A DNA stretch of 64,000 nucleotides from Astropecten irregularis (Eukaryota; Echinodermata; Asteroidea; Paxillosida; Astropectinidae), in contig OZ020245.1 in the NCBI GenBank assembly GCA_963971285.1, forward strand, positions 20,040,983 to 20,104,982, given 5' to 3'. Made by a program: the position numbers and the translations under genes. Within the stretch, counting starts at the first letter, position 1, and the number at the start of each line of letters is the position of its first letter. Of this stretch, positions 59,301 to 62,300 are shown piece by piece. The notes under the pieces are model-generated. The model had not been told where the DNA came from and made no database searches. It saw only the letters and a list, made by a program, of their open reading frames with translations.

Positions 59301-62300
59301 ATGCTTTATTATTGTTTTTTACTCTCAAAATAAACAAGCGCAGCGAATTATTGCAGCACTGTCGAAAACGACATTTTGGAAACATTTCCGGAAAATGATT
59401 TTTAATTACGTCATTTCCAGAAATCCGGAAATTTCCAGAACTCTAATACATCCCTGAGGATTTCGGTTGAGTGACCTTACCTCCATCCCCATCATCGGTC
59501 ACACCCAGCACTAGCCTCAGCAGGAACTGTGCCTTCTTGTGCTCCCTGAGGAGGACCTCAGCGTAGCCTGGCAGCCGTAGGAAGAGGCCAAATGCGGCCA
59601 GAGAGTGCGGGGGTATGACGGCCGTGCTGCTGACCGGCCCGTGGGATGCCGGGGCCGATGCATTGGACAATCCACCAGGGAGTGGGGGCTCAATGCCTGA
59701 ATGTGAAAACGAAGGCTGGGGGGAAACAAAGGGTAAAGAATGGTCATCAATCCATGAGGCAAAATGAAATATGTAGGCACATTCAGAAAAAAAATAACCC
59801 AGAAGCCGTCATTCAGAGTTAAAACTTAATCTAAAACACCAACTCTGATGAAATTGTCACTACAAACAAAATTAAAACTGAGAATAAATTTGGATAACAA
59901 AGAATAAAATTTACCCTGAATGTCATGGATATTCTTAAATAGGAACGTTCCTTAAACCACTGTGCAAGTCTGAGTTTCTCTAAGTCTTGGTAAAGGCATT
60001 TTTGGGACCTGGACCAGGTGGTATCAGCAAGCTTCCAATGGAATTACCCAGAAAACTTCTAAGGACCTACAACACAATGGATTTTGGGAGGACTTTGGGA
60101 TTGTTTAAGGGGGTAAACTCACATCCTCTTCTTCCATGATGCCCTGTGATCCCCAGTGCTCTGGTGTGCTGGAATGCCAGGCCATCATTCCACCCTCTCC
60201 GTTCTTCTCAGAGTGCCTGGTTGATGTCCCGGACGACTGCCTGGGTATGTCATGGTAGACAATAGGCAGGTGCTCGGCGATCAGGGCCAGGCCCCCTAGG
60301 CTGGCAAAGACATGCAGAAAAGAGGGCATCGGGGTGGTGTCCAGCAGCATTGACTTGTCGGGACAATTGCTGTTCTCCAGTGAGCCAGGGAGTCTATCCG
60401 TGGCGGTTGCTGGGGAGGACGATGAAGCACCATTTACTGAGGCTGCTGCAGGAGGGAACAGAGGTGGTATTAGTCATATTCTAGTAACAAAGCATGGATG
60501 TCAATAATGATTACATTTTGTTGAGGACTTTTCTTTACCTTCCTTTGCTTCTCTCCTTTTGGAGCTGTCCGTCTTGGACGTTGCTCCAATCTCCTGCATC
60601 CTCAGCTTCAACCTCAGCTCCAAGTAGGGGGACCCTAGAGGAAGCCCTTTGCCGTGGAGCACGGCCAAGAGCTGGCCCAACGCCACGCCATCCGGCAGAC
60701 GCACCTCGGGCAGGAGAGCATGGCACAGGGTCACCACAGGCACTTGCATGGGGTCTTTGGCAGCCGAGGCGCCGCCGGCCTTGCTGCTGGCTGAGGTCAT
60801 GGGGCCGAGGGACGCAGCAGGCTTGGAGTAGGCCTGGCTGGAGAGGGGAAGGAGAGGGAAGGCCGCCGACATGGAAGAGGCTGAGAAGGCCGAGAAGGAG
60901 GAGGTATTCAGGTCCTTGTCCAGGTGGGAGGACGTCATTGGCTTCTTGGGTTTGGCTTCTGGGAAATCGGACAAGAAACAGGACATCAAAGTATGTAGTA
61001 TTCAGATTACATAAACTCCCCCAAAAGCCCAATCAACAGGGTCGTTGAAGAGCATGTGCATTGGGAATGTTATTACTCAAATACAAACAGACTAAAAGAA
61101 ACTTTTCCATGGTGCCAGTGATTTTAACCATTTCCACAACCATTCCAGGGTTAAAGGCAGTGTACAGGATTTGCAAGGCCTCAAAAAATAATCATTGAGT
61201 TTGAGACAGAAAATGGACTCAATAGTTCGTAAACAGTGCAAACAGTCACCACGGAAAAATCTTGGTTCATCAGATGCTGGGTTTTTCAAGGAAATAACGA
61301 TTTAGTGTCTTTGAAAAAGATTGTTTGTCCGAACAATCTTTTTAGCATTTCAAAAGCGTGGTGTAACCGTGAAGGATTCAGAGGGGGGAAAGATTATTTC
61401 GGCTGTATTTCTGCTATCCAGAACAAAGAGTAAAAAAGGTGCATTAAACAACGTCTGTAAGGAAGTTTAAGACCTTCACTTCAGTTTAAGTACCAAATTA
61501 AACCAAAACGCACATTTTTGTAAATCATATATGCTCCCCTTAAGTTTTTGGTTTGTTTGTATATATATGGCATATGTAAAATCCGTGCTATTATGAAGAG
61601 ATTTAACAGTCGTGACCCAGCTAATGTTCCATTTGTAATTACCCTGGTGTGCAGCATAGTTGATGTACTGTTCAGATTCAATCAGTTCCTTCTTGCCAGG
61701 CATGTAGTCCACCAGGACAAAGGGCTCTTCCTTCTTGCTCCTGTCTCCCTTGGTCTTGACGTCTTTGGGAAGACTTGTGGTCTTCACAAGAGACAGAGTG
61801 TCTGAAAGGAGAGCACATCAAGAGTCAAAGGGATGACTTAAATAAAGGATTGGTAAAGGACACCGTACAGTACTTGTATTGAACTTGTACTGATTGGCCA
61901 TTATAACACACCTGTGAAAACCAAAAACAATTTAAGAAAGATTTGAGGCTTTGCATGGTGACAATTGGTATGTGGATGTAGTCTGGTCTCCTGATGAGGA
62001 CTAGAGCAGACTAGTCGAAACGTTGAGACCTAATTGCGAGAAGTGCAAATGATATAGAAGTACAAACGATATAGAAGTGCGAAAGTACGAACGATTATTA
62101 CATGGTGTTTCCGCAAACCGATCCACATACCAATTGTCACCATGCAAAGCCTCAAATCTTTCTTAAGAGTCAAAGGGATGACTACAATAAAGGATTGGTA
62201 AAGGACACTGTACAGTGCTTGCATCTTAACTGATTGGCCATGTACATTGAATAACACATCTGTGAAAGCTTGGACCCAACCATGCCAGCCAAGTCATAAG

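What the first reader, a model, noticed from the sequence alone, without database searches (positions are those of the whole stretch)
61985..62030. Hammerhead ribozyme-like motif in the loop of a perfect foldback element
CTGATGA and GAAAC are joined by a 6-bp stem II (GACTAG/CTAGTC) and enclosed by a perfect 6-bp stem I (GGTCTC/GAGACC). GUU supplies the expected UH cleavage position. Minimal stem III hammerheads are known in Penelope-like elements and retrozymes. Here the motif sits in the loop of an element with perfect 45-bp arms, with no reverse transcriptase frame nearby. A ribozyme inside a MITE-like palindrome, transcribed within a BIRC6 intron on the opposite strand, would be unusual. 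One extra G before stem II is the main departure from consensus.
Basis: partly seen in the sequence, partly recalled or inferred. Interest (0 to 1): 0.85.

Follow-up and report, generated by a model that had tools for sequence, protein, structure and literature searches.

The report
Short Penelope-type retroelement with hammerhead motif
The hammerhead-like motif is real, but it is the front end of a short, many-copy jumping element that carries the hallmarks of Penelope-type retrotransposons, and the 'palindrome' around it looks like a by-product of how such elements insert; whether the motif still cuts RNA is untested.

Summary
Observation confirmed: stem I, CTGATGA, one extra G, stem II, GAAA and CGTT lie at 61985-62030; an equally good layout occurred twice in 4034 shuffled windows. 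Interpretation partly supported. The motif is of the minimal, stem-III-less type known from Penelope-like elements (PLEs), but not part of a MITE-like palindrome. Of the 40 best copies in the host genome only 2 carry the left arm; the repeated unit is about 180 nt, 61985-62164. Copies show PLE marks: short target-site duplications (13 of 23 single copies; 5 of 506 mismatched controls), head-to-head pairs inside one duplication (4 of 6), and a 35-37-nt tail at one outer end only (5 of 6 pairs). PLEs in the same genome (RT-like plus GIY-YIG) end in an analogous motif, also with one extra nucleotide, and an optional tail; the element's own partner was not found. The window's left arm is an inverted piece of the element's 3' end. 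The extra G, missing stem III, a competing fold and copies that begin upstream of the cleavage site argue against efficient self-cleavage alone.

The parts
61985..62030 (+). Minimal (stem-III-less) type I hammerhead-like motif: stem I 61985-61990/62025-62030, core 61991-61997, extra G 61998, stem II 61999-62004/62011-62016, GAAA 62017-62020, CGTT 62021-62024; predicted cleavage after 62024
   Evidence: extra G kept in all 19 copies aligned, of 30 fetched
61985..62164 (+). The repeated unit: short Penelope-type element, 5' end at the hammerhead, 3' end at CTTTCTT
62130..62164 (+). 'Tail': present at one outer end only in 5 of 6 inverted pairs; the tail-less end is at 62128/62129; AC-rich stretch around the inner end
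   Evidence: compared with PMC11167929
61934..61977 (-). Inverted piece of the element's own 3' end (tail plus about 9 nt), the left 'arm' of the foldback
61978..61984 (+). Joint of 7 nt (GTAGTCT) between the inverted piece and the hammerhead
62039..62080 (+). Tandem 17-nt repeat inside the element body (2.5 copies)
61820..61919 (+). Left copy of a direct repeat of about 100 bp that flanks the insertion; possible unusually long target-site duplication
62165..62267 (+). Right copy of that direct repeat; begins exactly at the element's 3' end

Best explanation
The motif is the 5' end of a short (about 180 nt) non-coding retroelement that is inserted by Penelope-like (PLE) enzymes, most likely acting in trans. 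Its RNA starts at the hammerhead and ends in an AC-rich region with two starting points for reverse transcription, 35-37 nt apart. The enzyme cuts both strands of the target some bases apart (leaving duplications of 9-14 nt) and can start a DNA copy on each strand. When both strands are copied, the two copies meet head to head, which gives the inverted pairs. In the window's copy one of the two stopped after about 44 nt, which made the 'foldback'. Shown: unit, ends, duplications, inverted pairs, one-sided tail, presence in the genome of PLEs with the same kind of end. Inferred: insertion by a PLE, action in trans, copying of both strands. The hammerhead is probably a poor self-cleaver as a monomer; it may act as a dimer, need the PLE protein, or mainly serve as the hairpin that marks the RNA 5' end. 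The figure of confidence is for Penelope-type insertion as such; it includes rival 2 (truncated ends of a longer PLE), which differs only in whether the unit is a separate element.
For: Genome copies: the 40 best of 3101 candidates were scored; 33 of 40 begin at query 53-58 and 39 of 40 end at 230-235. Flanks are unrelated between copies apart from scattered other repeats. Exact flank matches of 8 nt or more in 13 of 23 single copies against 5 of 506 mismatched flank pairs. Head-to-head inverted pairs in 6 of 30 loci; duplications of 10-13 nt around the whole pair in 4 of 6, against 0 of 30 mismatched pairs at 8 nt or more and 2 of 30 at 7 or more. In 5 of 6 pairs the inverted partner ends at query 197/198 while the direct copy has the tail. 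L026 has about 200 bp of unrelated DNA between the inverted copies, as described for PLEs (PMC3846280, passages). PLE-like frame L044 with GIY-YIG over its cut-off and RVT_1 just under it (27.1 against 22.6 and 28 against 29.6 bits); 15 loci of that family end in a hammerhead-like motif with one extra nucleotide before stem II, 6 of 15 with a further tail. Passages of PMC11167929: a PLE enzyme cuts and extends both strands and starts reverse transcription at two adjacent sites that bound the 30-40-bp tail.
Against: No PLE carrying this element's own body or tail was found: BLAST of the unit against 30 GIY-YIG loci (30 of 60 matches fetched) gave one weak 31-nt hit. The copies were picked by similarity to the window's copy, so truncated and tail-less ones are under-sampled. 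The window copy has no short duplication; its flanks are a diverged repeat of about 100 bp with 12-14 unmatched nt on the left. 10 of 23 single copies and 2 of 6 pairs show no clear duplication, and in L028 the partner ends near 163, not at 197/198. No covariation. Within the motif GAAA (3 of 120 mismatches) and CGTT (5 of 120) are not clearly better kept than the body (88 of 2695).
Confidence: 0.85

Rival explanations
1. MITE-like foldback DNA transposon (TTAA target) that happens to carry a hammerhead in its loop.
For: Perfect 46-nt arms ending in TTAA in the window copy.
Against: Left arm in only 2 of the 40 best copies; duplications of variable length 9-14 nt that are not TTAA; inverted pairs have unequal outer ends, 197/198 against 232-235.
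Confidence: 0.04
2. The unit is not a separate element but 5'-truncated ends of a longer PLE whose full-length copies were not sampled; PLEs are usually 5'-truncated. (Nested in the best explanation: same insertion route.)
For: PLEs are 5'-truncated on insertion (PMC8969392, passage). L009 and L024 share a 34-nt stretch that reaches the motif's start. The L044 PLE family has a similar hammerhead-to-tail end and leaves short solo insertions, also in this window.
Against: 33 of 40 copies begin within query 53-58, in several cases abutting the duplication or 1 nt from it (L002, L006, L010, L020), whereas random truncation would scatter; ranking by similarity should not penalise upstream extension.
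Confidence: 0.3
3. Metazoan retrozyme: non-autonomous element with a self-cleaving type I hammerhead that spreads through circular RNA.
For: Size of about 180 nt, no coding frame noticed, hammerhead; PLEs are named as likely helpers of retrozymes (PMC7761336, passages).
Against: Copies are single units, not same-strand tandem repeats, in the 30 loci read with 1.5-kb flanks (L016 holds a second, 77% copy on the same strand about 1.1 kb away, and the joint in L028 repeats part of the motif); copies begin upstream of the cleavage site, not at it (sample biased); the hammerhead lacks stem III.
Confidence: 0.1
4. Chance resemblance to a hammerhead in an unrelated repeat.
For: No Rfam match; the extra G; no covariation; GAAA and CGTT not clearly better kept than the body; the predicted best fold pairs part of the core with CGTT.
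Against: About 5 in 10,000 per shuffled window; the position is where PLE hammerheads sit; the L044 PLE has a motif of the same layout.
Confidence: 0.05

Closest known systems
Minimal hammerhead motifs of Penelope-like elements (Cervera & de la Pena 2014; Lunse et al. 2017; neither is held here, known only through passages of reviews)
   Same: Type I layout, stems I and II, no stem III, linked to PLE termini; a self-complementary ACGU lies between GAA and the cleavage site here, as dimer formation would need
   Different: One extra G between the core and stem II; in the viroid CChMVd an A-to-G change of the extra residue at that place is strongly harmful (PMC3705267, passage)
PAc, Poseidon-type PLE of Anolis carolinensis (PMC11167929, passages)
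   Same: Hammerhead upstream of two reverse-transcription start sites that bound an optional tail of 30-40 bp; both target strands used
   Different: PAc codes for its own enzyme and its hammerhead overlaps the ORF start; no frame was noticed in the window element
Penelope elements of Adineta vaga (PMC3846280, passages)
   Same: Head-to-head inverted pLTRs, a 31-bp tail on one of them, 8-10-bp duplications in several cases, palindromes at the joint, captured unrelated DNA
   Different: There mostly around long coding elements; here short units
Metazoan retrozymes (PMC7229834, passages)
   Same: Short, non-coding, hammerhead-bearing, PLEs proposed as helpers
   Different: Canonical hammerheads in tandem repeats with circular RNAs; here single units with a minimal motif

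Membership tests
Hammerhead ribozyme | Core CUGANGA and GAAA flanked by stems I and II, UH at the cleavage site | tested here: met
Hammerhead ribozyme | Stem II directly adjoining the core, without an inserted nucleotide | tested here: not met
   Extra G at 61998, in all 19 copies aligned of 30 fetched; CChMVd has a natural extra A at that place, G there is strongly harmful
Hammerhead ribozyme | Stem III in the monomer | tested here: not met
   ACGU with no loop; absence of helix III is usual in PLE-type minimal motifs (PMC7761336)
Hammerhead ribozyme | Match to an Rfam hammerhead model | tested here: not met
   the L044 PLE end is missed too
Hammerhead ribozyme | Compensatory changes in the stems | tested here: inconclusive
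   0 pairs with change on both sides in 18 distinct rows; copies too similar
Hammerhead ribozyme | Self-cleavage | not testable with these tools
   bench assay needed
Penelope-like element (insertion hallmarks) | Short target-site duplications | tested here: met
   13 of 23 single copies, control 5 of 506; not found in short form at the window copy itself
Penelope-like element (insertion hallmarks) | Head-to-head inverted copies within one duplication | tested here: met
   6 of 30 loci are inverted pairs; exact duplication in 4 of 6
Penelope-like element (insertion hallmarks) | Optional 30-40-nt tail on one end | tested here: met
   35-37 nt, 5 of 6 pairs
Penelope-like element (insertion hallmarks) | Own RT and GIY-YIG frame, or a coding partner with the same ends | tested here: inconclusive
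   PLE-like frames present but with different end sequence; 30 of 60 GIY-YIG loci examined
MITE / foldback DNA transposon | Terminal inverted repeats in most copies | tested here: not met
   2 of the 40 best copies
MITE / foldback DNA transposon | Fixed-length target-site duplication | tested here: not met
   9-14 nt, various sequences, in 13 of 23
Metazoan retrozyme | Same-strand tandem repeats of the unit | tested here: not met
   Not seen in 30 loci with 1.5-kb flanks, apart from the distant second copy in L016
Metazoan retrozyme | Circular RNA | not testable with these tools
   needs RNA data

The most novel reading that the evidence does not exclude
A SINE-like class that lives off Penelope elements: units of about 180 nt made of little but a hammerhead at the 5' end and the two-site reverse-transcription start at the 3' end, moved in trans. 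In it the hammerhead, weakened by an extra G and without stem III, no longer serves cleavage; its hairpin instead fixes the RNA 5' end and provides the self-complementary cDNA ends that join the two strands' copies head to head. Every inverted pair then records both start sites and both target strands, a natural read-out of PLE integration.
Probability: 0.3. Interest if true: 0.6.

Novelty: new member of a known kind. Interest (0 to 1): 0.38.

Why it matters
[quoted passage not shown] A many-copy family whose genomic copies keep the whole motif upstream of the cleavage site, with precise ends and inverted pairs, lets one ask from sequence alone whether cleaved or uncleaved RNA is the template, and fits in a genome what was seen in vitro for one lizard PLE: two start sites and use of both target strands.

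Tried and rejected
MITE reading: rejected on copy structure. Rfam hammerhead models: no match, not taken as decisive because the L044 PLE end is missed too. Compensatory change: looked for, none found in near-identical copies. The element as the end of the abundant L044-type PLE: rejected, no sequence match beyond one weak 31-nt hit. Exact scans of viral contigs and genome contigs for the motif: 0 stretches each. A fair test of whether copies start at the cleavage site (query limited to 62031-62129, neutral to both ends) was asked repeatedly and never answered, so the absence of such starts among 30 loci is only suggestive, because ranking favours full-length matches. Total copy number was not obtained: 3101 is the number of first-look candidates, not of confirmed copies. 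Full texts of Cervera 2014, Lunse 2017 and Craig 2021 are not held; what is said of the first two comes from review passages. The listings of the literature searches showed no title or abstract start that describes a short non-coding PLE family of this build; with those three papers unread this is weak. The host species was not identified.

Full report
What is there. The motif stands exactly as described at 61985-62030, including the extra G at 61998. The arms are 46 nt and fully complementary. The same search on 4034 dinucleotide-preserving shuffles of the window, both strands, gave 2 layouts with both stems of 6 bp or more. Alone or in the 182-nt unit the stem pairs are predicted with probabilities of 0.98 or more, but the best fold also pairs GATG of the core with CGTT; inside the foldback a rival hairpin lowers the stems to about 0.39. 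Rfam gives no hammerhead match.

The copies change the picture. The window lies in a genome of 475.7 Mb. A search with the whole foldback scored the 40 best of 3101 candidates. Besides the window's own copy only one other (C30:6310237) matches from the first base of the left arm; 33 of 40 begin at query 53-58, the foot of stem I (the others at 1, 1, 40, 45, 60, 62 and 68), and 39 of 40 end at 230-235. Flanks of the 30 fetched loci are unrelated to one another apart from scattered other repeats. So the repeated unit is 61985-62164, about 180 nt, with the hammerhead at its 5' end, and the left arm is not part of it.

How it inserts. In 23 single copies (7 of 30 loci left out: the window and six inverted pairs) an exact match of 8 nt or more between left and right flank occurs in 13; pairing the left flank of one copy with the right flank of another gives 5 of 506. 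The 13 matches are 9-14 nt with various sequences; a few bases at their start may belong to the element's end. Six loci (L005, L011, L013, L022, L026, L028) are head-to-head inverted pairs; an exact duplication of 10-13 nt encloses the whole pair in 4 of 6, against 0 of 30 mismatched flank pairs at 8 nt or more and 2 of 30 at 7 or more; L013 and L022 show only loose similarity. In five of the six the inverted partner ends at query 197/198 and the direct copy at 232-235; in L028 the partner ends near 163. L026 holds about 200 bp of unrelated DNA between the two copies.

These are marks of Penelope-like elements as described in passages I read: an optional 30-40-bp tail between two reverse-transcription start sites, cutting and extension of both target strands, start in an AC-rich stem loop (PMC11167929); head-to-head inverted pLTRs with a 31-bp tail on one, duplications of 8-10 bp in several cases and none in others, captured DNA (PMC3846280); minimal type I hammerheads lacking helix III in PLEs (PMC7761336, PMC6155905). 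The window's left arm is then an inverted start of a second copy that stopped after the tail and about 9 nt, joined to the hammerhead by GTAGTCT. That joining of two first strands is my inference; PMC3846280 prefers self-priming for the inverted structures.

Coding PLEs in the genome. A GIY-YIG search listed 60 matches, 30 fetched. L044 has a frame, open at the locus start, with GIY-YIG over its cut-off (27.1 against 22.6 bits) and RVT_1 just under it (28 against 29.6 bits, E 2.1e-6); that this pair means a Penelope-like element is my own knowledge. Fifteen loci of this family end in GCCT-TTGAGAA-A-GATCC-TGCTA-GGATC-GAAA-CGCGTC-AGGC or close to it. Read as a hammerhead it has U and A where the core pair C3-G8 is expected (13 loci) or C and A (2 loci), and again one extra nucleotide before stem II. 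Six of the 15 carry a further tail of about 60 nt, nine do not. The numbering of core positions is recalled. This family has no sequence match to the window's unit beyond one weak 31-nt hit, so the actual partner is not identified.

The flanks in the window. A direct repeat of about 100 bp flanks the insertion (61820-61919 and 62165-62267); its right copy begins exactly at the element's 3' end, its left copy ends 12-14 nt before the arm. This could be a very long target-site duplication or an older repeat that was hit; parts of it recur more weakly elsewhere in the window (49100, 17098, 57993). The divergence, several mismatches and gaps, does not decide it.

Does it cut? Unknown. Against: no stem III; a best fold that ties up part of the core; an extra G, which at the same place in a viroid hammerhead is strongly harmful while the natural extra A is milder (PMC3705267, passage); copies begin upstream of the cleavage site, so the RNA that was copied had not been cut there, though truncated copies are under-sampled by the ranking. 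For: 14 of 30 copies are identical from the core to the end of stem I, and mismatches are fewer in the core heptamer (1 of 210) than in the body (88 of 2695); but GAAA (3 of 120) and CGTT (5 of 120) are not clearly better kept than the body, the tail is (16 of 1260), and the sample was chosen by similarity to one copy. In PMC11167929 the PLE hammerhead cut only with the PLE protein present and its loss did not affect insertion in vitro, which fits a motif that is kept yet not needed to trim the template. The inverted pairs hold their motifs on opposite strands; in L028 part of the motif is also repeated on one strand, the inner copy without the core heptamer (read by eye).

Gene context. A frame at 58129-58674 on the minus strand matches BIRC6 structures (E 2.9e-21), so the motif, on the plus strand, would be antisense in that gene's transcript. 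That 61985 lies in an intron was not shown here; the nearby frame 61476-61817 has no significant match.

Verdict. Real motif, good hunch about Penelope-like elements, wrong frame: it is the end of a short retroelement and the palindrome is an insertion product. New member of a known kind, of moderate interest for the open question of what PLE hammerheads do.

Noticed in passing
21273-21497: Another Penelope-type insertion (L044 family): an inverted tail-less end, hammerhead-like motifs, then a direct copy with tail, enclosed by AGAACTCAAAAAT at 21273 and 21485.
   Followed up: partly
37092-37200: Solo L044-type PLE end with tail, 91% identical to L044.
   Followed up: no
57514-57696: Two successive tail-less L044-type hammerhead fragments, separated and flanked by three copies of CAATAATAGAATTT (57514, 57597, 57683), as if two insertions used the same target.
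   Followed up: partly
L005, L012, L030: Flanks of 3 of the 30 copies hold pieces of the L044-type PLE end.
   Followed up: no
L034-L060: Many of these PLE loci are up to 99% identical to one another with open frames, suggesting recent activity; the hammerhead-like core has U-A in place of the C3-G8 pair in 13 of 15 loci.
   Followed up: partly
L031 (G000:C94): A bacterial-type frame that looks like UvrC (named by eye, no search beyond the GIY-YIG match) on another contig: perhaps a symbiont or contaminant in the assembly.
   Followed up: no
2950-7148 and 8180-10882: Long arrays of a 105-bp tandem repeat.
   Followed up: no
L009 and L024: Two copies share 34 nt that reach the start of the motif, perhaps part of a longer parent element.
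   Followed up: partly
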